A DNA stretch of 64,000 nucleotides, from the NCBI GenBank assembly GCA_022072085.1, contig JAJVII010000006.1, positions 1 through 64,000 of the forward strand. Reading direction: 5' to 3'. The position numbers and the translations under genes are program-made. The notes beneath the pieces are model-generated. The model ran no database searches and was not told the DNA's origin. It saw only the letters and a list, made by a program, of their open reading frames with translations. The DNA is from Phycisphaerae bacterium. GTDB taxonomy: Bacteria; Planctomycetota; Phycisphaerae; JAJVII01. Position 1 is the first letter of the stretch. Each line of letters begins with the position of its first letter. This document shows positions 31,780 through 50,255 of this stretch, in pieces.

Positions 31780-32964
31780 CTAGTCGACGATCTGCGTCCG
31801 CTCGCCGTCGGTGCGGATGGACATGCAGGGCGGCGCGGGCAGGTCGCCGGGCGGCGGGCCCTGGAGCTTGCTCAGGTCGTAGTCGCGGGCCATCTCGTAG
31901 AAGGCGACGACGTTCTGGACGGGGCAGTCGAACCCGACCACGTTGGACGCGCGGAAGACGTAGCCCCCGTCGTAGGCGCAGTAGCGCATCAGGAAATCCA
32001 CTTCGCGTTTCACGTCGGCCAGTGTGCCCAGAGGTAGTGTCCTTTGAATGCTCCCGCCGCCGTCGAGGGTGACGCGGCTGCCGAACTGGCGCTTGAGCAG
32101 GGCCGGGTTCACGCACTCCGGCTGAAGCGGGTTGATGATGTCGAAGCCGACCTCGATGAGGTCCGGGATGATCGGCGTGATGTCGCCGTCGCTATGGAAG
32201 AAGAAGCGGACATCGGGGTTCACCTTGCGGGTCTCGTCGATCATTCGCTTCCAGACTTGCTTGTCCAGCCGCCGCCACTGCGCCGGCGGAACGATCATGC
32301 GGTCCTGCATGGCCACGTCGCCCCAGAAAGCGACAAGGTCCGCACCGGCCGCAGCGAGCCGCCGCAGGATCGGCAGGTTGTAGGCCAGTATCCGCTCGTA
32401 GATCGCCTCGACCCACTCGGGGTTGGCGACGTAGTCGCACAGGAAATTCTCGAAGCCCCGCATGTGCCAAGCCTGCTTGAACGGGTGCACGCAGCCGCCG
32501 CCCTCGACCATGTAGCCGGCCGCCTTGTGGGCCGCGACCTTGTCGGCCAGTTGCGGGTCGTCGACGATCACCGACTCGTCGGGCCAGTCGAACGCGTCCA
32601 GGTCGTCTGTGGCGGCGAAGGGGCCGGTGACCCATTCGAGATACTTGCCCGTGCTGCCGATCCGCTCGACGTAGCCCCAGCGGTTCTGGAATGTCCGCTC
32701 GTCCAGCAGCACCGTTCGGCCGACATGGCCGAAGGGCCCGCTCAACTCGCCATTGATCCGCTTCTCGTATTCGGGCCAGCGGGTCTTGACGCCGGCCCCG
32801 CGGAAAAGGTCGGCTTCGAGGATCTGCTCGACCTCGCGGGCCGTCTCGACGCGGTAGTGCTTGCGAACGGCGTCCATGACCTCGTCGCGCCAGCCGAGTT
32901 GGATCGGGACGATGTCGGGGGTGCGATGGTCCAGGGCAGCCAGCAGGCGTTCACGCGGGGTCAT
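31780..32964 (-). CDS. Uroporphyrinogen decarboxylase-like protein (URO-D superfamily)
   Basis: A 394-residue TIM-barrel protein of the URO-D superfamily. It starts MTPRERLLAALDHRTPDIVPIQLGWRDEVMDAVRKHY, the usual opening of these proteins. A conserved core follows (FFFHSDGDITPIIPDLIEVGFDIINPLQPECVNPALLKRQFGSRVTLDGGGSIQRTLPLGT). Unlike heme-pathway HemE it lacks the N-terminal FMRQAGRY-type motif. It therefore more likely belongs with the corrinoid-linked methyltransferase or unknown branches that are abundant in PVC genomes. ATG 32964 has GGGAG at correct distance. It lies 45 bases downstream of the fused oxoprolinase-like gene on the same strand, so it is probably co-transcribed. The methyl donor or substrate is unknown. 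Confidence 0.8.
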   Translation of the reverse strand: MTPRERLLAALDHRTPDIVPIQLGWRDEVMDAVRKHYRVETAREVEQILEADLFRGAGVKTRWPEYEKRINGELSGPFGHVGRTVLLDERTFQNRWGYVERIGSTGKYLEWVTGPFAATDDLDAFDWPDESVIVDDPQLADKVAAHKAAGYMVEGGGCVHPFKQAWHMRGFENFLCDYVANPEWVEAIYERILAYNLPILRRLAAAGADLVAFWGDVAMQDRMIVPPAQWRRLDKQVWKRMIDETRKVNPDVRFFFHSDGDITPIIPDLIEVGFDIINPLQPECVNPALLKRQFGSRVTLDGGGSIQRTLPLGTLADVKREVDFLMRYCAYDGGYVFRASNVVGFDCPVQNVVAFYEMARDYDLSKLQGPPPGDLPAPPCMSIRTDGERTQIVD

Positions 32965-33009: not shown

Positions 33010-36000
33010 TTAACGAATTTCCGCTGGCATGCCATACCCGCCGCCACCGGGCGTTTCCAGGATCAGCCGGTCGCCGGGGCCGACGTCGCAGCCGTCGACC
33101 GGGCCCAGCATTTGCTCGCGGCCATCGGCCCGCACGATGCGGTTGACGCCGGTTGCCCCAGGTTGTCCGCCGGCCAGTCCGTAGGGCCGCTGCACGCGGT
33201 GCTGGGTCAGGAGCGAGAGGCTCAGCGGCGCGAGGAATGTGTATTCGCGGACCACCCCGTCGCCGCCACGATGTCGGCCGGCTCCGCCGCTGCCGAGCCG
33301 GATCGCGAACCGCTCCAGCCGCACCGGGTAGCGGTGCTCGATGACCTCTGGATCGGTAATGCGGGTGTTGGTCATGTGGCTGTGGACGGCCGACGCCCCG
33401 TCGAAATCCGGTCCAGCGCCGCAGCCGCCGCAGACGGTCTCGTAGTATCCGAACCCCGGCCCGCCAAACAGCACGTTGTTCATCGTCCCCTGACTGCACG
33501 CCGCGACGCCGAAGGCCTTAAGCAGCGTGTCGACGATCCGCTGACTGGTCTCGACGTTGCCGCCGACGACGGCCGGGCAGGCCCCCGGGTCGTCGGGGAA
33601 ATCGGGATTCAGCAGCCCCGGCGGGACGCGGACCTCAACCGCCTGCATGATGCCTTCGTTCAGCGGCAGAGGCTGGCGCACGAGCAGTCGCAGGACGTAG
33701 ATGACCGCGCTGCGGACGATGGCCGGCGTGGCATTCAGGTTGCCCGGGTGCACGCCGCCGCTGCCGGCAAAGTCGATGACCGCCGGCTCATCCCCCGCCA
33801 GTTCGATTGTTACGCGGATCGGCGTGCCGTCGTCGAGGTGTTCGACGGCCTCGCGTCGGCCCGTGGGCAGGGCAGCCAGGGCGGCCCGCGTGTGCCGCGC
33901 AGCCAGCGACTTGAGGGCGACCATGTAGTGTGCGACAGTGTCGGTTCCGTGCTCAGCGACCATGGCCGACAGGGCGGCAGCGCCGCGATGGTTGGCAGCC
34001 ACCGCCGCCGCGAGGTCTGCCAGGTTGTCCTCTACCGCCCGCGTCGGACATGGGCCGGTCGTCAACAGTTCCCGCATCGCCTCCCACCGCTCCTGTCCAG
34101 CGCGGACGAGAAGCGTGGGAGGAACGACCACGCCTTCCTCAGCCAGCGACCGGGCCGCCGGGGGCATGGAACCCGGACGCGAGCCGCCGATCTCGGCGTG
34201 GTGCGCCCGGCTGGCGACGTAGCCGACGAGGCGGCCGCCGACGTGAACCGGCGTTACGACCGTCATGTCGGGCAGGTGCGAGCCGCCGCAGGCCGGGTGA
34301 TTGGTGACCGCGACGTCGCCCGGCTTCAGGTCCAGCCGCCGCGCCAGATCGCGCACGCACAGGCCGATCGCCCCGAGGTGCACGGGGATGTGCGGTGCGT
34401 TGACGACCAACTCGCCGCCGGCGTCCAGCAGGGCGCAGGAGAAGTCCAGCCGCTCCTTGACGTTCACCGAGAGGGCGGTCCGCTGAAGCATCGCGCCCAT
34501 TTGCTCGGCGATGGCCCGGAAGCGGTTGGTGAACAACTCGAGCATCACGGCCTCGGGCCGATCGGCGGCCGCGGCGGTGGCCGCGGCAGCCTGCCTCATC
34601 CGCCGCAGGACAATCGCTCCGGCGCCGTCGACGTGGGCCGCCCAACCCGGTGGGATGACGGTGGCGCTATGGGCCTCGAAGACGAGGGCTGGTCCGTTGA
34701 TGCGGGCGCCGTGGCGAAGTTGGTCGCGCTCGAACGTCGCGGCCTCCACCCAGTCGCCGTCGAAACAGGCAGACTGGCAGCCGGCCGGCGACGGCGTGTG
34801 TTCAGCCGCCGTGACGGCTGGCTGGACCGCGTCGCAAACCTGGCCGGAGGCGATGACGCGGAGCGACTCGACTTCGATTGCGCGGGCGGCAGGCCGGTGG
34901 CCGTAGACCTCGCGGTAGCGGGCGTCGAATGCGTCGGCCAGGGCGGGACCGGCGGGGTCGCAGTCGATGGCCAGCGAGAAGTCCTGGCCGACGAAGCGCA
35001 GGTTGGCGATCCGGCGGCGGATCGCGACCTCGTCGGCTGGGACGCCCTCATCACGCAGGGCCGCGACGGCCTGGGTCGCCAGTTCGGCGAACGCAGCGTC
35101 GATTTCTCCGGTCACGTCGTCCAGCCGGGCGAGGACCTGGCGTTCGGCGAACCGCTCGATTGGCGCATGGCCGATGCCCATCGCGCTGAGCAGCCCGGCG
35201 TCGGGAGGCACGACGATGGTGGCGATGCCCAGGCGGTCGGCCACCGGGCAGGCGTGCTGCGCGCCGGCGCCGCCAAAGGCGACCAGGGCGTAGTCGTTGG
35301 GGTCGTAGCCGCGAGCGACGGAAATTCGGCTGATCGCGTCGGCCATGCGTTCGTTGGCGATGTCGAGTAAGCCGGCCAGCAGGGCGTCGGGGTCGGGCGA
35401 TTCGCCCGTGGCGGCTTGCAGGGCGTCGCGGAGTTCGTCCAACCGGGCGCGGGCGGCAGCCGGGTCGATGGGAATCTCAAAACGCGAGCCGTCCAGTCGG
35501 CCGAGCAGCAGGTTGGCGTCGGTAATCGTGAGCGGCCCGCCGGCGCCGTAACAGGCCGGCCCGGGCCGGGCGCCGGCCGACTCGGGTCCGACCCGAAGGC
35601 GTTGGCCGTCGAAGCGGCAGATCGATCCTCCGCCGGCGGCGACGCTCTCGATCGCGAGCGCCGGGGCAACCAAGCGGGCGTCGCCGACGCTGTGCTCGAA
35701 GACGTATTCGTAATCGCCGTCGATGCGGGCGACGTCGGTGCTGGTGCCGCCCATGTCAAACGCGATGACCCGCTGAAACCCTGAACGCCGCCCGCTGACG
35801 GCCGCCCCGGCGACGCCGCCGGCCGGTCCCGAGAGCAAACTATCCTTGGCGTGATAGTTCGCGGCCCGGACCAGCCCGCCGGCGCTGGTCATAACGTGCA
35901 GCGTCGAAAAGTGAACCTGGTCAACTCTTTCCTTGGCGATGGCCGCGGCGACGGCGTGCAGGTAGTCGTCGATCACCGGCGAAAGAAAGGCGTCGACGAC

Positions 36001-36846
36001 GGCCGTTTGGGTCCGCGGCAACAGCTTGATGAAGGGGGCCAGGTCGGCTGAGCAGGAGACGTGCTCGAAGCCGCGGGCGAGCAGGAACTGGGCGACCCGC
36101 CGCTCGTGCGCGTCGTTGCGGTAGCTGTGCATCAGGGCGACGGCGGCGGATCGGACGCCGCGCGCCAACAGGGCGTCGGCCGGCCCGGCCAGCACATCCA
36201 GGTCGAGCGGGCGGAGGACCGAGCCGTCGTTGGCCAGGCGTTCGTCGACCTCGATTACGGCGGCGTGCAGCGGCGGCGACTTGACGACGTTGAGCGCGAA
36301 CAGATCCGGCCGGGCCTGCGTGCCGATCGCCGGCAGGTCTGCGAAGCCGCGCGTGATCAGCAGCGCGGTCGGCGCCCCGCGGCGCTGGAGCAGGGCGTTG
36401 GTGCCGCGCGTCGTGCCCAGCCGCATGGCCAACGGTGGCAACGGACGCTCGGCGGCGGCGCCGGTGGCCAGCCGGGCGGCCATGATGGGGGCCTCCTCCG
36501 GGCTGACGACCTCGAAGGCCTGTCCGGGGCGGGCGTTGGCCTCCAGCGGCTCAGCCAGCGTGATGATCGACGCGAACGGGTCGAAGCCCACGACCTCCGC
36601 ATCATCGTGGGGCACGCCCAGGAGGCGAAAGGCGAAACCGCGGATGAAGTCATCGGGGGCCGACCACTTCTGCTCCACGCGCAGGCGCGTGGGACTCAGC
36701 CGCATGGCGACCGTGCCGCGCAGGGAGGAACTGGAGAGCACCTTCGCGCGGCGGAGGTTGCCGTTGGGATCGCGGGTCAGGCAGTCGGTGAACGTGCCGC
36801 CTGTGTCGATCCAAACCTGCCAGGTTGATGCGGGCATTTCACTCAC
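33010..36846 (-). CDS. Fused hydantoinase/oxoprolinase (HyuA-HyuB)
   Basis: A 1278-residue cytoplasmic enzyme joining the two halves that are separate hyuA and hyuB genes in many bacteria. The HyuA half (about 1-750) has the ATP-binding motif [12 protein letters not shown] at residues ~12-23, [14 protein letters not shown], and [12 protein letters not shown]. The HyuB half (from ~768) has [42 protein letters not shown] and [15 protein letters not shown]. The full length matches eukaryotic-type 5-oxoprolinases, which open 5-oxoproline to glutamate with ATP. Related enzymes use hydantoins or acetone, so the substrate is uncertain. The GTG at 36846 has GGAG eight bases upstream. It is the upstream partner of the URO-D-like gene. 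Confidence 0.9.
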
Positions 36847-37050: not shown

Positions 37051-39807
37051 CTACTTCACCTCCGCCTTGGCCACGTTGCTGATGGGACTTTCGTTGTTGC
37101 ACTCGTCGCGGGCCTTGAGAGCGAAATAATAGGTTCCGGGCTTGAGGCCCTTGACGGTGAAGGTCTGCTTCGTGCCGGCCTTGGCGGGGGTCGGCTCGCC
37201 GGTGCAGTTGATTGCTGCCCAGAAGTTGACGTTCTTCTTCGATCCGTCAGCCGTCTCGACCAGCGGCAGGTCGTCGTACTTCACCTGGTAAAGGGCGGCT
37301 GTGCCGGCGTTCGCGTCGTCGCCGGGGGCGGTCCAGGTCAGCGTGACCTCGCCGGCGCCGGCCGCGGCGGCCAGGTCGGCGACGGCGGCTGGGGCGGCCT
37401 TGTCGGGGCGAGGCTTGGCCCACAGGTAGCCGGCGCAGGCGGGGAAGTAGCCTCCCAGGCGGGCGTAGCTGGCGGCCTGCTCGCTGTAGTATTCCTCCAA
37501 GCCGGTCTGGTCCCAGCAGAACGCAGTCATGGTCGGCCAGGCGCCCTTGCTCTTGTGGCGGTCGCGGTCCAGGCCGATCACCAGGTCGCGAATCCGCTCG
37601 TCGCCGGTAAGGTCATAGGCCATCACCGCGGCGCGGCTGAAAACGTCCATGAACCAGTTGTTGTCATACTTGATCATTTGCACGCTGCGGTTGCGGCGGG
37701 CGACGTCCCAGAAGTTGTCCAGCGCCGGGTTGAGATACTTGAGGGCCTCCTTGTCGCCGGTCAGTTCGTAGTAGCGGACCAGGGCGCGGAGGGCCCAGCC
37801 GGTGTGTCGGCCGATGTCCACCTTGCGCAGGCCAACCAGGGCGCCGCCGTAGCTGGCGATGTTGGCCATGCCTTCGCGGGCCCGCTCATCGCCGAAGAGG
37901 AGGTAGAGGTCATTGAGTTCGTCGAGGTTGGCGTGCTCGGGATTCGGTCCGAACCAGCCGCGACGGGCGTAGCGACCGGCGGAATATTTAGCGATCTCGT
38001 CGCCCTTGGGCTCCAGGCCCTTGCGGCTGCACCACTCTTCGGCGACGTTGTTGCCGGAGTAGCCCTTCCAGTCCTTGTAGTCCCACAGGTCCGTGCCGTC
38101 GATCTTGTAGGCCCGCAGGTCGCGGAAGTGGCGGAATCGCCGCAGGCCGTATTCCAGGAAGTTCGGCCCGCCGGTGTTGACGTAGTTGAAGAGGAAGTAG
38201 CTGCTGCCGATCGGCTCGTAGTTCCACGGCGAATGGCCGGCGTATTCCTCCCAGCGGCAGCCGAAGACCTGCCAGCCGAACGCGTTGCCCTTGAGGTAGT
38301 CGGTCATAAAGTAGCGCCGCTCGGTGACGGGCAGTGGGAAGTCGCCGGTGACGGTGTGGACCGGCTCGTTCTCCAGCGTGACGTCGTCCTGGCCGCCGAT
38401 GGTCAGGTAGGGCCCGAGGTCGGCCAGCGCCCCGCAGGCGGCGTAATGGGCGGGCGCGCAGCGGGCGAACAGCGTCGGAGTGACCATCATGTCGTCGATC
38501 ACGTGCGGCCATGGCCGCTTGAGCGGGTCGGCGGCATATTGCGGCTTCTGCGCGGTCGAGTAGAAGTGCAGCCAGATCTCCTGGCCCGACGCTGACGCGT
38601 CCTCGATCCAGTGAACGCCCTTATACTCCGCGGGGAACAGCGACACGCGGACCGTGCCGTCGCCGCTGACCTCGACGGCCTTGGGGAACAGTTCCCAGAA
38701 ATGCCGCGGGACGATGACGACGCCGACGTTCTTGTCGCCGAACTCGACCAGTCCGCGGGCGTGGTCGCCCTGGGCCACCTCGTTCTCCTTGCCGTCGGCC
38801 CGGTGGATGATCTTGTAGCCGCGGAAACTGGACAGGTCGCGGACGTTGGGGCCTTCCAGGCCGGGGTTGATCTTCCAGTTCTCCGAGCCGACGGAGTCCT
38901 GGTAGAGCAGGGCGCTCTGGTTGTCGGCCACGGAGACATCGACCGGCGCGACGCCGTAGATCTTCGCGACGCGGCCGCTGTGGCCGATCTTGAGCTGAGT
39001 GATCAGCGAGCAGTCCTCGAAGGTGGGCGAGCCGTTGGGCTGCGGGCCGTTGTTGGTGATCAGGGCGTCCAGGCGGACCGTGTTGAGCCCGGCGAAGAAG
39101 TCCATGCGAATCTCGAAGCCGTACATCCCCAGGCCGTAGCCCTTGCCGTCGCGGGCGCGATGCGTGCCCTTGGCGACGATGCGGACGCGCTGCGGGCCGG
39201 CCTCTTCAACGTGCACGTCGGTCGTGCCCTCGCCGGAGAGATACTTGGTGCCGAAGGTGTCGGTGACGACGCTCCCGCTGTCGACGCCGGGAACCAGAAT
39301 GGCCTCATCGTCGGTGAACTGGCCGTCGTTGTTGGCGTCCAGGCGGACCTGCTCGAAGAGGTTGAACTTCTTTCGGCTGATCGTGAACTCGGCGGGCCCG
39401 GTGTTGACGGTGATCCGGTCGTCGGCGACCTGCACCTTCAGAGGCGAGGCGGCGGCCGGCTTGGCGCCGCTGTCGGTCAGGGTGTACGTGGCCAGGCCGT
39501 AGCTCGGCACGTCGGCTTTGAAGTCCAGCAGAACCCATCGGATGGAGTTGTCTCCGCGCCACCAGCGGGCAAGCGGGCGGAACTGGCAGGGCACGACGTT
39601 GCCCTTGGCGTCCAAAAGGGCCAGCTTGTTCAGGTCGCTGCATTGGCCGGGCAGCAGCGGCACGCCGGAGGTGATCGGCAGACCCGCGCGGCCGCAACCG
39701 CCGGTCTCCTGGATCGTCAGCGGGATGCGGACCTCGGCACTGGCCGAGACGGTGGCGAGCAGGACCAGGGCCGACAGCGACAGGACGACGGAGCGCGTGC
39801 GGGACAT
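37051..39807 (-). CDS. Secreted PcRGLX/YetA-family protein with C-terminal FN3-like domain
   Basis: A 918-residue exported protein of the PcRGLX/YetA type, the fold of exo-rhamnogalacturonan lyases (PL26). A signal peptide (MSRTRSVVLSLSALVLLATVSASA) precedes an N-terminal barrel domain with the family pattern IPLTIQETGGCGRAGLPITSGVPLLPGQ and QFRPLARWWRGDNSIRWVLLDF. A central beta domain follows, then an alpha/alpha toroid with GRHTGWALRALVRYYELTGDKEAL. Residues ~800-918 form a fibronectin-III-like domain (AVADLAAAAGAGEVTLTWTAPGDD ... LKPGTYYFALKARDECNNESPISNVAKAEV). ATG 39807 has GAGGAGG at ideal spacing. Activity on rhamnogalacturonan is inferred from fold only; other uronic-acid polymers are possible. 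Confidence 0.8.
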   Translation of the reverse strand: MSRTRSVVLSLSALVLLATVSASAEVRIPLTIQETGGCGRAGLPITSGVPLLPGQCSDLNKLALLDAKGNVVPCQFRPLARWWRGDNSIRWVLLDFKADVPSYGLATYTLTDSGAKPAAASPLKVQVADDRITVNTGPAEFTISRKKFNLFEQVRLDANNDGQFTDDEAILVPGVDSGSVVTDTFGTKYLSGEGTTDVHVEEAGPQRVRIVAKGTHRARDGKGYGLGMYGFEIRMDFFAGLNTVRLDALITNNGPQPNGSPTFEDCSLITQLKIGHSGRVAKIYGVAPVDVSVADNQSALLYQDSVGSENWKINPGLEGPNVRDLSSFRGYKIIHRADGKENEVAQGDHARGLVEFGDKNVGVVIVPRHFWELFPKAVEVSGDGTVRVSLFPAEYKGVHWIEDASASGQEIWLHFYSTAQKPQYAADPLKRPWPHVIDDMMVTPTLFARCAPAHYAACGALADLGPYLTIGGQDDVTLENEPVHTVTGDFPLPVTERRYFMTDYLKGNAFGWQVFGCRWEEYAGHSPWNYEPIGSSYFLFNYVNTGGPNFLEYGLRRFRHFRDLRAYKIDGTDLWDYKDWKGYSGNNVAEEWCSRKGLEPKGDEIAKYSAGRYARRGWFGPNPEHANLDELNDLYLLFGDERAREGMANIASYGGALVGLRKVDIGRHTGWALRALVRYYELTGDKEALKYLNPALDNFWDVARRNRSVQMIKYDNNWFMDVFSRAAVMAYDLTGDERIRDLVIGLDRDRHKSKGAWPTMTAFCWDQTGLEEYYSEQAASYARLGGYFPACAGYLWAKPRPDKAAPAAVADLAAAAGAGEVTLTWTAPGDDANAGTAALYQVKYDDLPLVETADGSKKNVNFWAAINCTGEPTPAKAGTKQTFTVKGLKPGTYYFALKARDECNNESPISNVAKAEVK

Positions 39808-39982
39808 GCGAGCCTCCTCAGGGTGAAACGGCAGGAATCTTCCATCAGGCATAACCGACCCGCGGGGGCGATGTTCCGGCCGGCCGCGTGAGCCTGCCAC
39901 TTTGACGCGCGGGGGCCGACAAGTCCATAGTCTGCCCGGCAATGGGCTGATAGACTGGCGGCCGGCTCAGGAAAGGGCGCCG

Positions 39983-41041
39983 ATGAGCTACCAGGACGGA
40001 TGGTCCGCGATTCACCTTCAAATGCCGCCGCGCGTGCCGCGGACCGAGTATTCCGCCGAGTCGCATTGGGACCTGCTGCAGGCGGCGACGGGAATGGAAG
40101 TTGACGCGGACAGCCCGCCCGCCCAGCGGCTGGCGGCGCGGCGGGAGTTCTTCCGGCGGTGGAACTTCGGCCTGGTCTGGTCGACACTGGTCGGCGGCGG
40201 GGTGCTGGAGGCCTGCCGGAGCTACATGGGTCACGACGAATACGCCGCCGGCGGGACTGACCGGAGCGACCGGGTCAGTTGCCCGTTCACCGGCGTCGAT
40301 CAGATACTGCGGTTCGACCCGTGGGAGGCCTACGGGCCGATCGATCGCCGTGAATGGATCGGCCGGTTCGAGCGGCACTACGCGGCCCAGTGCGACGCCT
40401 GGCCGGACTGCGTGAACATGACCGGCGTTTACATCACGCTGGTGTCCGGGCTGATCGACATCTTCGGCTGGCAGATGCTCCTGACGGCGCTGGGCGAGGA
40501 CCCGGCCGGGTTCGGCCGGGTGGCCGAGCGGTACGCGTCCTGGGTGGAGCAGTTCTTCCATGCCCTGGGCGAGGCCGACGTCCCGGTGGTGATGGTGCAT
40601 GACGACATCGTCTGGACCGGCGGGCCGTTCGTGCACCCGGACTGGTATCGGCGGTTCGTTTTTCCCGCCTACCGCCGCCTGTTCGAGCCGCTGGTTGGCT
40701 CGGGCAAGCGGATCGCATTCACCAGCGACGGGAACTGGACGCAGTTCATAGACGACGTGGCGGCGGCCGGGGTGCACGGTTTCGTGATGGAGCCGATGAC
40801 CGACATGGCCTGCGTGGCGCGGCGGTACGGGCGGACGCACTTCTTCGTGGGCAACGCGGACACGCGAGTGCTGCTGGGCGGCTCGCATGCCGACATCCGC
40901 GCCGAGGTCGAGCGGTGCATGGCCATCGGGAAGGAGTGCCCGGGGTTCTTCATGGCTGTAGGCAACCACATTCCGCCCAACACGCCGGTCGAAAGCGCCC
41001 TGTACTACAACGAGGTCTACGAGCGGCTCAGCCGGCGTTGA
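39983..41041 (+). CDS. Second URO-D superfamily protein
   Basis: A 352-residue TIM-barrel protein of the URO-D superfamily, distinct from the 394-residue copy at 31780. The C-terminal half is typical: VMVHDDIVWTGGPFVHPDWYRRFVFPAYRRLFEPLVGSGKRIAFTSDGNWTQFIDDVAAAGVHGFVMEPM, then FFMAVGNHIPPNTPVESALYYNEVY. The second, non-overlapping block is the usual end of MtaA/CmuA-like methyltransferase relatives. It begins an operon with two epimerase-like genes (28- and 65-base gaps). A TTGACG box lies at 39902-39907 with a plausible -10 box (CATAGT) 18 bp on. The operon context suggests sugar metabolism rather than heme synthesis, for instance methyl-group removal from a sugar (inference). Confidence 0.78.
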   Translation: MSYQDGWSAIHLQMPPRVPRTEYSAESHWDLLQAATGMEVDADSPPAQRLAARREFFRRWNFGLVWSTLVGGGVLEACRSYMGHDEYAAGGTDRSDRVSCPFTGVDQILRFDPWEAYGPIDRREWIGRFERHYAAQCDAWPDCVNMTGVYITLVSGLIDIFGWQMLLTALGEDPAGFGRVAERYASWVEQFFHALGEADVPVVMVHDDIVWTGGPFVHPDWYRRFVFPAYRRLFEPLVGSGKRIAFTSDGNWTQFIDDVAAAGVHGFVMEPMTDMACVARRYGRTHFFVGNADTRVLLGGSHADIRAEVERCMAIGKECPGFFMAVGNHIPPNTPVESALYYNEVYERLSRR

Positions 41042-41069
41042 GGCGGCTGGGGAACCGAGGGAAACGAAA

Positions 41070-42404
41070 ATGGCTCCGGGCGATTACAGCAACTACGCGC
41101 CGCTGCTGCTGGGCGACGGCTTGACGGTCGATCGGCTCAGGCGAGACGACTATCGCGCATTCATCCATTCGGCGTCGATCGAGCCCGGCGTGCGGTTGCT
41201 AGTGGCGCGGCGGCGGGCAAGGCCCGACTGGCCGCTGATCGACACAAAGTTCAACCCCAACACCGGCGAAGAACGCGGCGAAGCGGCGTACGGCGTTGTC
41301 TATGGCTGGTTCCTCGGCCGGGGCATCGAGGCGCTGGCCGGGCATCTGCCGGTTCTGGATCGCCTGGCGGGGCTCAAGCCCGATGAGCGGCGGCGGGCGC
41401 GGGAGGATTTCGGCGAGATGTCGGCCAACACGGTCGAGGCGATCGCGGCCGCCCGCGAGGTGAACGGCGGGCGGATTCCATTTCGCATGAACCGGGACTT
41501 TGCGGCAATCGGTCCGCATGGCGAAATGCTGAAACTGGCCCTGGCCCTGCGAAGCGACACAGACCTGTTCTGCGGCAAGGGGCTGATAGCCGCGGGCGGG
41601 CAGGTGAACGTCTCCCGCGGCCTGACGCTGCTGCTGGAGTGTGCGAAGGAACTGGAAGCGAACCGGTTCGTCTCCGAGCCGTCCGCCGAGCCGGATGGCC
41701 GGATCGAGCAGGGCAGCCGGATGCTGATGCACGGGGCGGCCGGCACGCTGTTCGGCGTGACGAAAGATGCAGCGCTGCGCCGGCGGATGCTCGGCATCTG
41801 CGCGGCGTTCCTCAACTTCACGCTGGATCATCACTACGACTCCGCGTCGGCCGACTTCAGCGAATGGTTCGACGCGTCGACGGGCGATCGCGGGCCGCAC
41901 CTGGACCCGGGCCACGCGAATGAGTTGGCCGGCCTGGGCCTTGGGGCGGTTGCCTGCATGGAGGCGTTTGACGTGGCCGGCTACGCGGCGACCATCGAAC
42001 GGGGGCGGCGCGAACTTCCGCGGCTGCTGGCCCGCAGCACTGCGCTGGGCTGGAACGCCAGATACGAAGGCCTGCACAAGGCGGTCGATCCGTTCACCGG
42101 CCGGGTGATCAATGAGGACATGCCGTGGTGGAACTTGCCCGAGACGATGCGGGCGATCGTCCGGGCGCTGGCGGTCTGCGGCGACGAAGCCGTGCGGGCG
42201 ACGCTGCTGGGCCAGTTCGCCCGCTGCCACAACGCGTATTTCGCGCACTACCTCAACCGCGGGTTGATGCTTTTCCCGTTCCAGACGCGCAGCGGCGGGA
42301 CCGGCCGCGTGGTCGACCGTGTGCCGGCCGTGCCCGAGGGCGACCCGCTCTATCACAGCAACCTGAGCTTCCTGGAGATGCTGGAGGAGATCGATCTGTT
42401 GTGA
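41070..42404 (+). CDS. Epimerase-like (alpha/alpha)6 barrel protein, copy 1
   Basis: A 444-residue cytoplasmic protein without signal peptide. I do not recognise the family with certainty. The helical repeat pattern and the motif LDPGHANELAGLGLGA resemble N-acylglucosamine 2-epimerase/cellobiose epimerase barrels, whose H-P-G-H-x2-E segment is catalytic. Other blocks shared with the next gene are IEPGVRL, DTKFNP, GWFLGRG, LFCGKGLIAAG, MPWWNLPETMRA and VPEGDPLYHSNL. It follows the URO-D-like gene by 28 bases and precedes a tandem paralogue. It may interconvert or hydrolyse a sugar released by the nearby PcRGLX-like lyases. An unsaturated-glycuronyl hydrolase (GH88/GH105) is an alternative with the same fold. 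Confidence 0.6.
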   Translation: MAPGDYSNYAPLLLGDGLTVDRLRRDDYRAFIHSASIEPGVRLLVARRRARPDWPLIDTKFNPNTGEERGEAAYGVVYGWFLGRGIEALAGHLPVLDRLAGLKPDERRRAREDFGEMSANTVEAIAAAREVNGGRIPFRMNRDFAAIGPHGEMLKLALALRSDTDLFCGKGLIAAGGQVNVSRGLTLLLECAKELEANRFVSEPSAEPDGRIEQGSRMLMHGAAGTLFGVTKDAALRRRMLGICAAFLNFTLDHHYDSASADFSEWFDASTGDRGPHLDPGHANELAGLGLGAVACMEAFDVAGYAATIERGRRELPRLLARSTALGWNARYEGLHKAVDPFTGRVINEDMPWWNLPETMRAIVRALAVCGDEAVRATLLGQFARCHNAYFAHYLNRGLMLFPFQTRSGGTGRVVDRVPAVPEGDPLYHSNLSFLEMLEEIDLL

Positions 42405-42469
42405 CGCGGCCTTGCTTTGGCTGCCCGGTTCGGGTAGTCAGGCGGCATTCTCCTGTGAAAGGACCGACC

Positions 42470-43813
42470 ATGCGAGTGAAGCATTACGACGGGTACCGTC
42501 CGCTGCTGCTGGACGAGGCATTGACCGTCGAGCGGCTGAAGTGCGATGACTACCGCGCGTTTGTCCTGGGGGCGTGCATCGAGCCGGGGGTGCGGCTGAT
42601 CGTGCTGCGCGACGCGAAGAACGCGAACTGGCCATACGTCGATACGAAGTTCAATCCGGGCCTGGGCGCGGACCTGGCGCCGGAGAGCTATCACATCGTT
42701 CACTCGTGGTTCCTGGGCCGCGGCAGTCAGGCGTTGGACGGACACCTGCCCTGGCTGGACAAGCTGGAAGGGCTGGACGGCGTGGAGCGGTCGGAGGCGG
42801 GCAGCGTCTTCGGGCGACTGGTCGCGACGATGACCGAGGCCATCGAGGTGATGATGGCGCGGAACAACGGGCGATGCCCGTTCCGGACGAATCTTCGGCT
42901 GAAGGAAATCGATGAGGCCGGGCGCGAGATCGAGTCCGACACGAAGCAGGCCGGGGCCGGCGACCTGTTCTGCGCCAAGGGGCTGATTGCGTCCGGGCGG
43001 AAGCCCATGATCGAACTGGGCGTGAAGGCGCTGCTGGATGCGGCGGCGAAGATTCGCGCCGGCAGCTACGGCCACGACCAGTTCAAGGAGCAGCCAAAGG
43101 AACTGGGGCACGGGCCCAAGATGCTCTTCCAGGACGCGGTGAGCCTGCTCTACGCCAAGAGCGACGACGCGCGGCTGCGCGGGCAGATCGCCGACGTGGC
43201 GACCGAGTTCCTGGCGTTCGTGCTGGACAAGCATTGCGACCCGCAGACCGGCGTGTTCAGCGAATACATCGACTACAAGACTCACGCCCGCGGGACGCAA
43301 CTGGACCCGGGGCACTGCAACGAGTTCGTCGGCCTGGGGCTGGGGGCGATCGCAACGGTAGAGGCCGGCCAGCCCGCACCCGACGCGGGGCGGCGCAAGC
43401 TGCTCGCCCGCGCCAAGGCCGAGATGCCCCGGCTGCTGATCCGCAGCACCCGGTTCGGCTACAACCCGGCGCACCCGGGAATGTATAAGCTGCTGGACAC
43501 CGCCACGGGCAAGCCGATCAACCCGGAGATGCCCTGGTGGAATTTGCCCGAGACGCTGCGAGCGGTCGTACGGTGCCTGCAAGTCAGCGACGACGGGGCG
43601 ACGCGGGCGGAACTGCTGGAACTCTACCGGCTCTGCCACAACGCATACTTTGCGAACTATCTCAACCGCGGCAACATGCTGTTCCCGTTCCAGACGATCA
43701 GCGGGCTGACGGGCAAGGTGATCGACGTGGCCCCTGCGGTGCCCGAGGGCGACCCGCTCTATCACACGAACCTGGCGATGCTCGAGACGCTGGAAGTGAT
43801 CGAGGCGCTGTGA
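42470..43813 (+). CDS. Epimerase-like (alpha/alpha)6 barrel protein, copy 2
   Basis: A 447-residue tandem paralogue of the preceding gene, similar along its whole length. The shared signatures are IEPGVRL, VDTKFNP, SWFLGRG, LFCAKGLIASG, QLDPGHCNEFVGLGLGA, MPWWNLPETLRAV and VPEGDPLYHTNL. GAAAGGACC precedes the ATG at good distance. Both copies keep the presumed His and Glu of the D-P-G-H-x-N-E motif, so both are probably active, perhaps on different sugars or as a heterodimer. The gene converges with ppk2, seven bases away. Annotation as an N-acylglucosamine-2-epimerase relative is tentative. Confidence 0.6.
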   Translation: MRVKHYDGYRPLLLDEALTVERLKCDDYRAFVLGACIEPGVRLIVLRDAKNANWPYVDTKFNPGLGADLAPESYHIVHSWFLGRGSQALDGHLPWLDKLEGLDGVERSEAGSVFGRLVATMTEAIEVMMARNNGRCPFRTNLRLKEIDEAGREIESDTKQAGAGDLFCAKGLIASGRKPMIELGVKALLDAAAKIRAGSYGHDQFKEQPKELGHGPKMLFQDAVSLLYAKSDDARLRGQIADVATEFLAFVLDKHCDPQTGVFSEYIDYKTHARGTQLDPGHCNEFVGLGLGAIATVEAGQPAPDAGRRKLLARAKAEMPRLLIRSTRFGYNPAHPGMYKLLDTATGKPINPEMPWWNLPETLRAVVRCLQVSDDGATRAELLELYRLCHNAYFANYLNRGNMLFPFQTISGLTGKVIDVAPAVPEGDPLYHTNLAMLETLEVIEAL

Positions 43814-43820
43814 TCGCAGC

Positions 43821-44624
43821 CTATCGCACGACCACGTTCTCCAGGTCCGGGGCCGCGGGCGGGAAGGCCATGTTCAGTTTCCGCAGGGCCCGCGTGACGT
43901 GGTGGGCGATCACGAGATTGCGGTACCACTTGTGGTCGGAGGGGACCACGATCCAGGGGGCCCACGGTGTGCTTGTCTTCGACAGCGCGTCCTGGTAGGC
44001 CTCCACGTATTTCGACCAGAGCTTCCGCTCGGCCAGGTCGCCCACGTTGAACTTCCAGTTCTTCTGCTTGTCATCCAGCCGCTCCTGGAGCCGCTGCCGC
44101 TGTTCCTCCTTGCTGATGTGCAGGAAGAACTTCAGGACCGTCGTGCCGGTGTCGGCCAGCAGTTTCTCGAACGCGTTGATGTGGTCGTATCGCTTCTTCC
44201 AGACGGCCGGCGGAACCAGGCCGTGCACTCGGACCACGAGCACGTCCTCGTAGTGGCTGCGGTTGAAAATGACCAGTTCGCCGGCGCCGGGGACCTGCTG
44301 ATGAACCCGCCAGAGGTAGTCGTGGGCCAGTTCGGTCAACGTAGGAACCTTGAAGTTGGCTACGCGGCAGCCCTGCGGGTTGACGTAGCCGAAGACGTGG
44401 CGGATCGTGCCGTCCTTGCCCGCGGTGTCCATGCCCTGAAGCACGATGAGCAGGCGATGGCGCTGCCCGGCCCAGAGCAGTTCCTGGAGGTCCGCCAGTT
44501 TCTCTGAGAGCTTGAGCAGCCGCTTCTGGCCGCGGGCCTTGTCGCCGTCGAACGCGGAGGTGTCAGCCGGGTCAAAGCGGTCGAGCCGGACCTTGTGGCC
44601 GGGCTTGATGCGGTATCGGTCCAT
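43821..44624 (-). CDS. ppk2: Polyphosphate kinase 2 family protein
   Basis: A 267-residue PPK2-type kinase that transfers phosphate between polyphosphate and nucleotides in the cytoplasm. The Walker A-like loop is GMDTAGKDG (residues 64-72), and the partner motif is NRSHYEDVLVVRVH (from residue 121). The NRSHYEDV form and single-domain length fit the class I group (nucleoside diphosphate to triphosphate), although class cannot be fixed by eye. ATG 44624 with GAGGTG upstream is preferred over GTG 44633. A good promoter (44652-44679) gives a leader of about 20 bases. Confidence 0.93.
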   Translation of the reverse strand: MDRYRIKPGHKVRLDRFDPADTSAFDGDKARGQKRLLKLSEKLADLQELLWAGQRHRLLIVLQGMDTAGKDGTIRHVFGYVNPQGCRVANFKVPTLTELAHDYLWRVHQQVPGAGELVIFNRSHYEDVLVVRVHGLVPPAVWKKRYDHINAFEKLLADTGTTVLKFFLHISKEEQRQRLQERLDDKQKNWKFNVGDLAERKLWSKYVEAYQDALSKTSTPWAPWIVVPSDHKWYRNLVIAHHVTRALRKLNMAFPPAAPDLENVVVR

Positions 44625-48038: not shown

Positions 48039-50255
48039 ATGTTCAGCTTCAAAGTCGTTGCCTCGGTGCTGCTGGTGGGCCTGCTCGGCGGCGTGGCGTT
48101 GGCCGCCGATGCCATCTGCGACCTGACGCTGGCTGAGCGATTCGGCATCGCCCGCCAGAACGAGCCCGTCCGTATGGGCGTGCCGCTGGCCGAGGGCGTC
48201 GCCAAGGACGCCGCCCAACTGGCCCTGACCGACGCAAGCGGCCAGCCGATCCCCGTGCAGATCGACCCGGCCATGACCTGGCCGGACGGCAGCCTGCGGT
48301 GGGTGCACGTCAACTTCGTCGCCAGCGTGCCGGCCAACGGCAAGACGGTGGTCCATCTGGTCAACGGCGCCCCGGCGCGCAGCGACAGCCAGGCTGACGC
48401 GACCAGCGCCTTTGACGCTGGGAGTCCGAAGGTGGCTCTGATGGCGATGATCGGCGGAAAGCCCTACACCAGCTTCGCCGATAAGGCCGCCAAGGCGGAG
48501 GTGGTCGTCAAGGGGCCCGAGCGTGTCATTCTTCGACGGGCGGGGCGGCTGACCAGTGCGGACGGCGGCGAGCAAAGCCTGAACTTCACCATCTACGAGA
48601 CGCGCTACGCGGGCAGCCCGCGGGTCGATCTGTCGGTCTCCTACACCAACGAAATGGGCAAGGCGGCGGCTGACCATGTGGAGATTCAGGATTTAACCCT
48701 GGTGGTCGAAAGTGGCCTGAAGCAGGCCCGGTTTGCGATCGGCGGCGAGAAGGGCGCCCAGGCGGGCCAACTCGGCGACGGCGAGTCGGCTTCGGTTCAG
48801 GCGACGGCCAGCAAGAGCGTGGTCATCAAGAAGGGCGACACGCAGCTTGAGCAGTTTGACCCGATCCTGTCCAAGCCGCTGACCGTCGGCTGGGCGGCGC
48901 TGAGCAACGACAAGGGCGGACTGGCCGTCGGCTGCCGCTGGTTCTGGCAGATGTGGCCGAAGGATATCACTGTCAGCGGGGACGGGATGATCCGCGTGGG
49001 GCTCTACTCGGCGGCTGCTTCCGGCGGCAAGGCGCTGGACTGCTACATGGGCCAGGGACGCACGCATTACGTCACGGTCCAGCCCTTCGCCGCGGGCGAC
49101 GCCGACAAGGTGGCCTCCGCGATGACTGCCTGGCAGGTTCCCCTGCGGGCGGTCGCGACGCCGGCCTACTACTGCCGCACGGCGGCGGGTTTCGGCCTGG
49201 TGGGCGACAACGACCCGGCCATCTACCCGGCGGACCTCAAGCCGGTGCTGGCGGGCTACGACGCGACGCTCCGCAAGTCGCTCGATTACATCGTCAAGAA
49301 GAAGGACGGATGCACCTACGGCGGGGTCACCAAGGACAGCTACGGCTACAACTACTGGGGCGACGTCTTCCACTGGGCCAACATCAGCGGCGACCCGGAC
49401 CCGCGATGGACGCTGTGGGAGAGCAACTACTACGACTTCCCCTTCGCCTGCATGCTCCAGTTCGCCCGCACCGGCGACGAGGCCTACCTCGACGTGGCCG
49501 ACCCGCACGGCCTGCACCTGGCCGACGTGTTCATGTGCAAGTGGGATCCGCAGCCGATGTACCGCGGCGCCTGCCGCTACAGCCCGCCGGCTGACGAGGT
49601 GGGCAATGACATGGGCAAGGAGAAGGCGTTCCAGCCCTATCGTTCCGTCGAGTTCAATCACCACAAGGCCCAGTCGATCGTCTATCGCTACCTGCTGTTG
49701 GGCGACCTGCGGGCCAAGGACGACTTCCTCCTGGCCCTCAACAACGCCTTGCTGAACCCCGAGGAGAGCTGGCGGCAGTGCCGCGGGCCCGGGGCCAAGC
49801 TGGCTACGCTCTACGAGGGCTACAAGCTCACGCACGACAAGGCCTGCCTGGACGTGATGAAGCGCATCATGACCAAGGCCGAGGCCCTGACCGACAACCC
49901 CAAGGGCTTCAGCAAGCAGGGCAAGAGCGGATACTTCATGATGGGCATCGCCCGCGAGGGCATGCTCGACTGGTGGCAGCTCACCAAGGACGACAAGGCG
50001 GTCGCCGTGGTCAAGTCGATCACCGACTTCCTGCTCACCGGAGGCGGCGGGCTCCAGGGCGCCCAGGACGCCTACCCGTTGGCCTACTGCTATCGCAGCA
50101 CCGGCGAGCAGGCCTATCGCGACGCGGCCGTCAAGCTGCTGACCAGGACGGGCACGGAACAGCGGCCCAAGGGCTTCGGCATGAGCTGGCGCAGCACCCC
50201 CTATGCGTGGTATTACCTCTCGGACCTGGCGGCCAAGGACAAGGCTGGCAAATAG
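48039..50255 (+). CDS. Secreted PcRGLX/YetA-like protein, shortest copy
   Basis: A 738-residue exported protein. Signal peptide MFSFKVVASVLLVGLLGGVALA is followed by the N-terminal barrel pattern (NEPVRMGVPLAEGVAKDAAQLALTDASGQPIPVQI ... TWPDGSLRWVHVNF). The central domain and an alpha/alpha toroid follow (YNYWGDVFHWANISGDPDPRWTLWESNYYDFPFACMLQFARTGDEAYLDVADPHGLHLADV). Compared with the other three copies it lacks ~80-150 residues and has its own toroid motifs, so substrate range probably differs. It is the first of three consecutive family members on the plus strand and is separated from the next by a 17-bp perfect hairpin. Predicted periplasmic or extracellular; exo-lyase activity is inferred from family. 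Confidence 0.75.
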   Translation: MFSFKVVASVLLVGLLGGVALAADAICDLTLAERFGIARQNEPVRMGVPLAEGVAKDAAQLALTDASGQPIPVQIDPAMTWPDGSLRWVHVNFVASVPANGKTVVHLVNGAPARSDSQADATSAFDAGSPKVALMAMIGGKPYTSFADKAAKAEVVVKGPERVILRRAGRLTSADGGEQSLNFTIYETRYAGSPRVDLSVSYTNEMGKAAADHVEIQDLTLVVESGLKQARFAIGGEKGAQAGQLGDGESASVQATASKSVVIKKGDTQLEQFDPILSKPLTVGWAALSNDKGGLAVGCRWFWQMWPKDITVSGDGMIRVGLYSAAASGGKALDCYMGQGRTHYVTVQPFAAGDADKVASAMTAWQVPLRAVATPAYYCRTAAGFGLVGDNDPAIYPADLKPVLAGYDATLRKSLDYIVKKKDGCTYGGVTKDSYGYNYWGDVFHWANISGDPDPRWTLWESNYYDFPFACMLQFARTGDEAYLDVADPHGLHLADVFMCKWDPQPMYRGACRYSPPADEVGNDMGKEKAFQPYRSVEFNHHKAQSIVYRYLLLGDLRAKDDFLLALNNALLNPEESWRQCRGPGAKLATLYEGYKLTHDKACLDVMKRIMTKAEALTDNPKGFSKQGKSGYFMMGIAREGMLDWWQLTKDDKAVAVVKSITDFLLTGGGGLQGAQDAYPLAYCYRSTGEQAYRDAAVKLLTRTGTEQRPKGFGMSWRSTPYAWYYLSDLAAKDKAGK

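What the first reader, a model, noticed from the sequence alone, without database searches (positions are those of the whole stretch)
39983..43813. Operon of a URO-D-like protein with two tandem epimerase-like barrels
A URO-D superfamily protein is fused by operon structure to two paralogous (alpha/alpha)6 proteins carrying D-P-G-H-x-N-E and M-P-W-W-N-L-P-E-T motifs. I cannot match the pair to a known enzyme. URO-D relatives of the MtaA/CmuA type move methyl groups with corrinoids, so a route for demethylating and then epimerising methylated sugars is conceivable.
Basis: inference. Interest (0 to 1): 0.55.

Follow-up and report, generated by a model that had tools for sequence, protein, structure and literature searches.

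The report
URO-D-like gene with two sugar-epimerase-like genes
Three neighbouring genes in an uncultured bacterium encode a protein related to methyl-moving enzymes and two copies of an unnamed branch of the sugar 2-epimerases; they probably process unusual sugars, but the trio was not found in the other genomes examined.

Summary
Three genes at 39983-43813 (+) form a closed unit: a URO-D-superfamily protein and two paralogues 48% identical to each other. The paralogues are assignable: N-acylglucosamine 2-epimerase (AGE) superfamily, in a clade that Pfam often misses. Profile-profile comparison with AGEs gives 99.4%, E 1.1e-21, and the AGE Arg/His/Glu/His motifs are aligned and conserved. The URO-D protein is neither HemE nor MtaA/CmuA; it is one of 34 URO-D-family hits in this genome. 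At 34 loci of its subfamily (35-68% identical) there is no barrel; two hold alpha-L-fucosidases, two hold aldehyde-dehydrogenase and microcompartment-shell genes, and two (one of them the same) a class II aldolase. All 15 class genomes with a close orthologue also encode a corrinoid-protein reactivase (180 of 397 overall). This genome has a free corrinoid protein and CODH/ACS, but no AcsE- or MtrH-type methyltransferase was found. Corrinoid-linked sugar O-demethylation is therefore possible but unproven. The three-gene unit did not recur; other, distant URO-D genes lie near 5 of 24 other barrel loci. First reading: partly supported.

The parts
39983..41041 (+). URO-D-superfamily protein, 352 aa; subfamily with invariant H206-D207-D208-x-x-W211, R223, D249, E270, D293, R295, N333 and nearly invariant H84, H329 (34 of 35 each)
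   Evidence: Pfam PF01208 5.4e-23; far below HemE and MtaA/CmuA cut-offs; 35-member subfamily set
41070..42404 (+). AGE-superfamily (alpha/alpha)6-type barrel B1, 444 aa
   Evidence: PF07221 3.5e-4 (20.4 bits, below the 23.4 cut-off); hhalign of eight family members against nine AGE-like proteins 99.4%, E 1.1e-21, these nine being AGEs by PDB profile search; weak structure model, best 20 VIA-align rows all AGE superfamily
42470..43813 (+). AGE-superfamily barrel B2, 447 aa, 48% identical to B1; R84, H282, E361, H432 aligned with the AGE motifs
39808..39982 (.). divergent intergenic region, presumed control region of the unit; one weak sigma-70-like match at 39902-39931 (+)
   Evidence: gene calls; consensus scan of 39700-44000: 1 found, 0.3 expected; not evidence of function

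Best explanation
The three genes are a small, lineage-specific sugar-catabolism unit. The two paralogous barrels are AGE-superfamily enzymes that most likely epimerise or isomerise a free aldose (or reducing-end sugar) by proton abstraction at C2, using the AGE active-site set Arg/His/Glu/His. The URO-D protein most likely removes a methyl group from an O-methylated sugar or sugar derivative (a 6-deoxyhexose such as a methyl-fucose or methyl-rhamnose is the best guess) and hands it to the free corrinoid protein encoded elsewhere, as the UroD-superfamily O-demethylases of acetogens do. The unblocked sugar would then be epimerised or isomerised by B1/B2. Shown here: family assignments, active-site conservation, presence of corrinoid protein, reactivases and CODH/ACS in the genome. 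Inferred: co-transcription, epimerase activity, methyl transfer, substrate, and the order of steps.
For: Barrels: 9 of 10 family members match PF07221 at E <= 0.1, best 1.4e-10. Profile-profile against nine AGE-like proteins of the same class: 99.4%, E 1.1e-21, aligning W-x-Q-x-R, PGHxxE, WWxxxE and DPxH; those nine hit solved AGEs at up to 2.4e-58. In 24 relatives R84, H282 and E361 are 24/24, and H432 is 21 of 22 with a residue there. Counting along the HMMER alignment puts PGH and WWxxxE on His239 and Glu308 of chain 2gz6. Barrel contexts: NagA-like deacetylase, below cut-off (L098, L108), GH94 + symporter-like gene + URO-D (L050), Gfo/Idh (L104, L108), DapA and sugar-isomerase-like (L049). 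URO-D subfamily: GH29 fucosidase within two genes (L148, L188), aldehyde dehydrogenase and microcompartment-shell genes (L155, L156), class II aldolase (L155, L158). Invariant Asp249 stands at a zinc-Cys position; a paper reports Cys-to-carboxylate changes in UroD O-methyltransferases (PMC10418091, passages). MtvB, OdmB, VdmB and MtoB are placed in the UroD superfamily and CdmB works without zinc (PMC13222342, passages). Reactivase in 15 of 15 genomes with a close orthologue and 17 of 17 with a strong barrel; any match to the URO-D query 160 of 199, without 20 of 198. Free corrinoid protein in 14 of 15. Both families in 5 genomes, 0.64 expected.
Against: No recurrence: 0 of 34 subfamily loci hold a barrel; in the nearest relative (G001, same family) the two genes are on different contigs and the barrel gene starts beside a divergent gene. 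No methyl-transfer gene on the window's contig among the families sought; Pterin_bind hits are a FolP-like protein and MetH, MtrH none. The profile of the subfamily matches HemE structures better than MtaA (9e-10 against 1e-5), and the weak structure model ranks HemE entries (Z 14.3-15.5) above MtaA (13.3, 12.7). The first His of H-x-[CD]-G is Thr in 23 of 35 members. Co-occurrence is not corrected for relatedness and may only mark anaerobic lifestyle. Both models are weak (pLDDT 52 and 57), and helical models can reach Z about 14 by chance (note). Only 5 of 34 subfamily loci show the deoxyhexose-type contexts; many of the rest look unrelated. PhyH oxygenase genes overlap the gene in two genomes (L193, L203), which does not fit a strictly anaerobic route.
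Confidence: 0.4

Rival explanations
1. Same unit, but the URO-D protein is not a methyltransferase: it does another step of deoxyhexose catabolism (for example C-C bond or decarboxylation chemistry, or handling a lactaldehyde-type product), and the barrels are AGE-type epimerases/isomerases.
For: Subfamily members sit among aldehyde dehydrogenase, class II aldolase and microcompartment-shell genes (L155, L156, L158). The subfamily lacks the His-Cys-Cys site and has its own invariant H206-D-D/D249/D293/R295 set; HemE structures match it better than MtaA. Overlap with PhyH genes in L193 and L203.
Against: Beside the decarboxylase, the UroD-superfamily members named in the passage read are MetE, the epoxide:CoM transferase and corrinoid methyltransferases (PMC10418091, passages); strong co-occurrence of the wider family with the corrinoid reactivase.
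Confidence: 0.3
2. Accidental neighbourhood: the URO-D gene and the two barrels are both scattered genes that happen to lie together; no shared pathway.
For: 0 of 34 subfamily loci hold a barrel. The URO-D tree groups the window copy with genomes of other families rather than with G001 of the same family. The genome has 34 URO-D-family hits, so chance adjacency is not rare.
Against: Co-directional with 28- and 65-base gaps and closed by a divergent and a convergent gene. URO-D-family genes of other subfamilies lie near barrels at 5 of 24 other loci, all on the barrel's strand (L050, L051, L054 and L055 of one genus, L109). A rough Poisson estimate gives P 0.002-0.012 for four independent cases.
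Confidence: 0.25
3. The barrels are unsaturated glycuronyl hydrolases (GH88/GH105) rather than AGE-type enzymes.
For: GH88/GH105 structures appear in the structural list for the B1 model (Z 11.4-12.9); a PcRGLX-like (rhamnogalacturonan-lyase-like) gene is next door.
Against: AGE-superfamily entries fill the top 20 rows (Z 13.2-16.2). No GH88 or GH105 Pfam hit for B1 or B2; PF07221 is the only family that more than one of the ten members match. AGE motifs align over most of the length.
Confidence: 0.04
4. The URO-D gene is the genome's uroporphyrinogen decarboxylase (HemE).
For: Pfam name; HemE chains are the best structure hits by sequence and by model.
Against: HemE model 17.4 bits against a cut-off of 303. 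The sequence match to HemE structures starts only at about residue 164. The HemE Arg motif RQAGR (recalled) is not in the protein.
Confidence: 0.01

Closest known systems
AGE superfamily (N-acylglucosamine 2-epimerase, cellobiose 2-epimerase, mannose isomerase, YihS; PF07221)
   Same: profile match over most of the length, Arg/His/Glu/His motifs, fold of the weak model
   Different: 444-447 aa against about 390-440 for the AGEs of the class; B1 falls just below and B2 misses Pfam's cut-off; Lys340 (24 of 24) and the QT...PA.P..DP block set the family apart; substrate unknown
UroD-superfamily corrinoid methyltransferases I (MtvB, OdmB, VdmB, MtoB, CdmB)
   Same: superfamily; an Asp at a zinc-Cys position; corrinoid protein and reactivase in the genome
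   Different: no methyltransferase partners on the window's contig among families sought; no AcsE- or MtrH-type second methyltransferase found; sequence closeness to these named proteins not tested (their sequences were not in hand)
MtaA/MtbA/CmuA (methylcobamide:CoM methyltransferases and relatives)
   Same: distant homology; alignment to 4ay7 covers profile positions 190-341
   Different: 34.9 bits against 244; His-Cys-Cys replaced by Thr-x-Asp and Asn-His
PVM-type (Planctomycetes/Verrucomicrobia) fucose/rhamnose microcompartment loci
   Same: two subfamily members lie among aldehyde dehydrogenase and shell genes, one with class II aldolase, one with acetate kinase
   Different: no shell or aldolase gene in the window's unit; the terms uroporphyrinogen, URO-D and PF01208 do not occur in the main text of the BMC taxonomy PMC4207490 (term search)

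Membership tests
AGE superfamily (PF07221) | sequence profile above Pfam's cut-off | tested here: inconclusive
   B1 20.4 bits (cut-off 23.4), B2 no hit; 9 of 10 family members hit at E <= 0.1, best 1.4e-10; of three further relatives L105 scores 30.8 bits, L098 and L108 no hit at E <= 0.01
AGE superfamily (PF07221) | profile-profile homology over most of the length | tested here: met
   hhalign 99.4%, E 1.1e-21, 342 columns, against nine proteins that are AGEs by PDB profile search (best 2.4e-58)
AGE superfamily (PF07221) | (alpha/alpha)6 barrel fold | tested here: inconclusive
   AF2 model of B1 weak, pLDDT 52, pTM 0.52; VIA-align rows 1-20 all AGE superfamily, Z 13.2-16.2, rmsd 4.3-5.1, 274-301 aligned, but helical models can reach about 14 by chance; Foldseek no match at E <= 0.001
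AGE superfamily (PF07221) | active-site Arg, His, Glu, His | tested here: met
   R84, H282, E361 in 24 of 24 relatives, H432 in 21 of 22 with a residue there; aligned with AGE motifs; that these four are the active site is recalled
AGE superfamily (PF07221) | C2 epimerase or isomerase activity | not testable with these tools
   needs enzyme assay
GH88/GH105 | sequence profile | tested here: not met
   no GH88 or GH105 hit for B1 or B2 at E <= 1
URO-D superfamily (PF01208) | sequence profile | tested here: met
   82 bits against 23.9
HemE | equivalog score TIGR01464 | tested here: not met
   17.4 bits against 302.95
MtaA/CmuA | subfamily score | tested here: not met
   34.9 against 244 and 22.5 against 235.4
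MtaA/CmuA | zinc ligands His-x-Cys ... Cys | tested here: not met
   Thr247-Ser-Asp249 and Asn328-His329 in their place
corrinoid MT-I O-demethylase | cognate corrinoid protein and reactivase in the genome | tested here: inconclusive
   a free corrinoid protein at C1:218735 and two reactivases are present; that they are cognate to this enzyme is not shown
corrinoid MT-I O-demethylase | corrinoid protein, MT-II or reactivase encoded next to the gene | tested here: not met
   the genome's hits for B12-binding_2, RACo_C_ter, Pterin_bind and MtrH are on other contigs or absent
corrinoid MT-I O-demethylase | second methyltransferase to tetrahydrofolate (pterin-binding or MtrH type) | tested here: not met
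   Pterin_bind: a FolP-like protein (by eye) and MetH only; MtrH none; assembly 96.95% complete, so absence is not certain
corrinoid MT-I O-demethylase | methyl transfer from an O-methyl substrate to cob(I)alamin | not testable with these tools
   needs enzyme assay

The most novel reading that the evidence does not exclude
An anaerobic route that strips methyl groups from methylated sugars with a zinc-Cys-free UroD-type methyltransferase and a corrinoid protein shared by many such enzymes in one cell, coupled here to AGE-type epimerases and, in relatives, placed among fucose/rhamnose-type microcompartment genes. The 34 URO-D-family hits of this genome would then be a library of substrate-specific demethylases feeding one corrinoid protein.
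Probability: 0.22. Interest if true: 0.75.

Novelty: new variant of a known kind. Interest (0 to 1): 0.42.

Why it matters
Methylated sugars are common in plant and algal polysaccharides (recalled), and the listings seen in the paper searches made here showed no corrinoid route for demethylating them. If the URO-D subfamily does this, it would give a function to part of a large unexplained expansion (34 family hits in this genome; matches in 199 of 397 genomes of the class sample) and link sugar breakdown to C1 metabolism. Even without that, the barrels define a clade of the AGE superfamily that Pfam often misses, and the microcompartment and fucosidase contexts give a concrete substrate class to test.

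Tried and rejected
Rejected: HemE. MtaA/CmuA membership. GH88/GH105 for the barrels. A recurring three-gene unit. Scans of viral contigs gave no relative of either protein. PDB sequence search with B2 alone gave only weak, unrelated hits. Foldseek with the B1 model had no match at E <= 0.001; its nine best rows are AGE-superfamily. Paper searches: in the listings seen (15 of 54, 12 of 191, 5 of 5, 0 of 0, 8 of 39 and 10 of 17 papers) no title or abstract start links the UroD family to sugar demethylation; one search was for AGE enzymes. One genome-contig scan found a single partial Lentisphaeria relative (L047).

Rows dropped: the G150/G179 hits (E about 1e-5) were left out as weak; gene calls there were unreliable. 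Of the 36 class genomes, 17 count as strong (E < 1e-40); of the other 19, ten loci were looked at, nine gave frames of 388-439 aa (the AGE set) and L086 was dropped as partial; the G539 fragment and the remaining eight were not examined.

My own errors: loci from the genome search keep contig orientation. In some searches I translated minus-strand matches on the wrong strand, so the URO-D profile, part of the AGE set and part of the query set were wrong. One search showed this and one search repeated the work; counts quoted are. Automatic gene calls were wrong in several GC-rich loci; six loci were repeated with the window's codon model, and presence or absence was taken from six-frame searches.
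Full report
What is there. Gene calling on the window gives three co-directional genes: URO-D-like 39983-41041, barrel B1 41070-42404, barrel B2 42470-43813. The gaps are 28 and 65 bases. The gene upstream (37051-39807) points away and the gene downstream (43821-44624, PPK2) converges, so exactly three genes can share a transcript; this is inference from spacing. Pfam gives URO-D at 5.4e-23 for the first gene, a sub-threshold GlcNAc_2-epim hit for B1 and nothing for B2. B1 and B2 are 48% identical.

The barrels are AGE-superfamily proteins. With B1+B2 as query, 10 of 294 genomes of the phylum sample match at E <= 0.001, with 12 matches. Ten of these 12, B1 and B2 included, make alignment A2; the two weakest (G150, G179) were left out. 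9 of the 10 members match PF07221, best 1.4e-10. Against solved structures the profile's best hits are two AGEs (E 0.002 and 0.004); counting along the alignment puts the invariant His of DPGH on His239 and the Glu of PWWxxPE on Glu308 of chain 2gz6. A profile comparison of eight members with nine AGE-like proteins of the same class gives 99.4%, E 1.1e-21 over 342 columns, and also aligns the W-x-x-GR Arg and the DPxYH His with the AGE motifs. Those nine are AGEs: their profile hits Pedobacter, Nostoc and Anabaena AGE structures at 2.4e-58 to 2.2e-56, and one of them, L087, aligns over its length with the Nostoc AGE. In 24 relatives R84, H282 and E361 are invariant, and H432 is His in 21 of the 22 that have a residue there. 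That these four positions form the AGE active site is recalled (His239/His372/Arg57/Glu308 of the Anabaena enzyme). PMC6333288 (passages) describes acid/base chemistry at C2, first ascribed to two His and later to an Arg and a Gln/Glu. The AF2 model of B1 is weak (pLDDT 52). The 20 best VIA-align rows are all AGE-superfamily structures, Z 13.2-16.2, but helical models can reach about 14 by chance. The clade has features of its own: Lys340 is 24 of 24 and the QT/PA.P..DP block nearly invariant.

Where the barrels occur. With A2 as query, 36 of 397 class genomes have a match at E <= 0.001, 17 of them strong (E < 1e-40). Neighbours are carbohydrate genes in several cases: NagA-like deacetylase (below the curated cut-off) in L098 and L108; GH94 with a symporter-like gene and a URO-D gene in L050; Gfo/Idh in L104 and L108; DapA and a sugar-isomerase-like protein in L049. 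In others (L052, L100, L105, L107) the neighbours look unrelated by eye. L048 holds a corrinoid reactivase gene about 3.7 kb upstream. No other genome shows two matches side by side, but several barrels lie at contig ends, among them that of G001.

The URO-D protein. It scores far below HemE and MtaA/CmuA models, MtaA-type models scoring higher than HemE (34.9 and 17.4 bits). Against PDB sequences the order is the reverse: HemE 9e-10, MtaA 1e-5; the weak structure model (pLDDT 57) also ranks HemE entries (Z 14.3-15.5) above MtaA (13.3, 12.7). So the nearest branch of the superfamily is not settled. The alignment to MtaA chain 4ay7 shows that the His-x-Cys and second Cys positions hold Thr-Ser-Asp and Asn-His. 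Over 35 subfamily members D249, H206, D207, D208, W211, R223, E270, D293, R295 and N333 are invariant, H84 and H329 are 34 of 35. PMC10418091 (passages) states that in UroD-superfamily O-methyltransferases one or both zinc Cys are replaced by carboxylates or non-coordinating residues. PMC13222342 (passages) places the O-demethylases MtvB, OdmB, VdmB and MtoB and the zinc-free chloromethane enzyme CdmB in the same superfamily. So loss of the Cys ligands does not speak against methyl transfer from oxygen, but it does not prove it.

Its subfamily. 15 of 397 class genomes have a match at E < 1e-100 and 23 of 392 phylum genomes at E <= 1e-40. I read 34 loci, whose proteins are 35-68% identical to the window copy. 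None contains a barrel (0 of 34, 499 kb; the same queries recover all 24 barrel loci). Two have a GH29 fucosidase within two genes (L148, L188). Two lie among aldehyde dehydrogenase and microcompartment-shell genes: L155, which also has a class II aldolase, and L156, which also has an acetate kinase. One lies beside a class II aldolase and an arabinofuranosidase (L158). Two are overlapped by a PhyH oxygenase gene (L193, L203). L142 follows another URO-D gene, and L143 has the same order by eye. The rest are mixed or look unrelated. The tree scatters the gene over families; the window copy groups with L188 and L142/L143 (97/93), its nearest fork being weak (87/50), and not with G001 of its own family, whose copy pairs with L156 (100/100).

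Genome context. PF01208 hits number 34, of which 33 reach the cut-off. The best one (L003) is MtaA-like, just under the cut-offs (224.7 against 244), with His-x-Cys and a Cys at the second site. None of the eight paralogues scanned with NCBIfam scored near HemE (eight of 34). The genome has one free corrinoid protein close to MtbC/MtgC models, all below cut-off, and MetH, two RACo/AcsV-type reactivases, and a CODH/ACS operon with a fused ACS-delta protein. Pterin_bind finds a FolP-like protein and MetH only, MtrH none. Thus a methyl group could be taken up by a corrinoid protein, but the usual onward transfer to tetrahydrofolate is not accounted for.

Co-occurrence. The reactivase is in 180 of 397 class genomes, in 15 of 15 with the close orthologue and in 17 of 17 with a strong barrel. 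Genomes with any match to the URO-D query have it in 160 of 199 cases, those without in 20 of 198. Barrel and close orthologue co-occur in 5 genomes, 0.64 expected. In the phylum samples 6 of the 10 barrel-matching genomes (G000, G128, G011, G099, G209, G220) are also among the 23; the two samples may differ, so no test was made. None of this is corrected for relatedness (G000/G001 share a family, G382/G474 a genus), and the reactivase may simply mark anaerobes. URO-D-family genes of other subfamilies lie on the barrel's strand within about 4.2 kb at 5 of 24 other barrel loci (L050, L051, L054, L055, L109). L109 is found by my own profile only; Pfam gives nothing. Counting L054/L055 once, the rough Poisson P for four is 0.002-0.012.

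Verdict. The barrels are a clade of a known superfamily that Pfam often misses. The URO-D protein belongs to an uncharacterised subfamily for which corrinoid-linked O-demethylation of deoxy sugars is my best, unproven reading. The three-gene unit itself was not found elsewhere in what was searched, which is against a conserved dedicated pathway made of just these three genes.

Noticed in passing
window 31780-32964 (-) and 33010-36837 (-): A second URO-D-family gene lies 45 bases behind a hydantoinase/oxoprolinase A+B fusion (1275 aa), which in turn follows a PcRGLX-like gene: another URO-D/sugar-type neighbourhood 7 kb away.
   Followed up: partly
window 37051-39807 (-), 48039-50255, 50368-52788, 52788-55451 (+): Four PcRGLX-like (rhamnogalacturonan-lyase-like) proteins in one window, three of them in a row; another PcRGLX-like gene sits beside the genome's free corrinoid protein (L059 6158-8542).
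   Followed up: partly
L064 and L204 (G000 contig C42): CODH/ACS operon with a fused ACS-delta protein and AcsV-type reactivase but no AcsE-type pterin methyltransferase found in the genome; a 359-aa protein that looks MetE-like by eye lies between two CooC-like genes, yet no Pfam or NCBIfam hit supports it. A GH29 fucosidase gene lies beside this operon.
   Followed up: partly
L155 1794-2837 and L156 9468-10517: The URO-D subfamily among aldehyde dehydrogenase and microcompartment-shell genes in two genomes of different families; the URO-D terms do not occur in the main text of the BMC taxonomy paper PMC4207490 (term search).
   Followed up: partly
L193 4319-5233/5230-6294 and L203 8100-9044/9041-10078: A PhyH-type oxygenase gene overlaps the start of the URO-D gene by 4 bases in two genomes of one family: a possible oxygen-dependent partner.
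   Followed up: no
L048 3259-5085 and 8789-10168: A RACo-type corrinoid reactivase gene (Pfam RACo_C_ter 248 bits) lies about 3.7 kb upstream of the single barrel gene of genome G209.
   Followed up: no
L103 2956-4158, L110 10386-11585, L053 16994-18190: About 400-aa proteins that look alike by eye lie near the barrel, convergent with it in L103 and L110; the L110 one has weak GH88/GH127-type Pfam hits, the L103 one none, the L053 one was not scanned.
   Followed up: no
G000 whole genome: No HemE-like protein stood out among the URO-D-family hits (best hit MtaA-like; eight of 34 scanned), so the heme route may be unusual or HemE may be in the missing 3%.
   Followed up: partly
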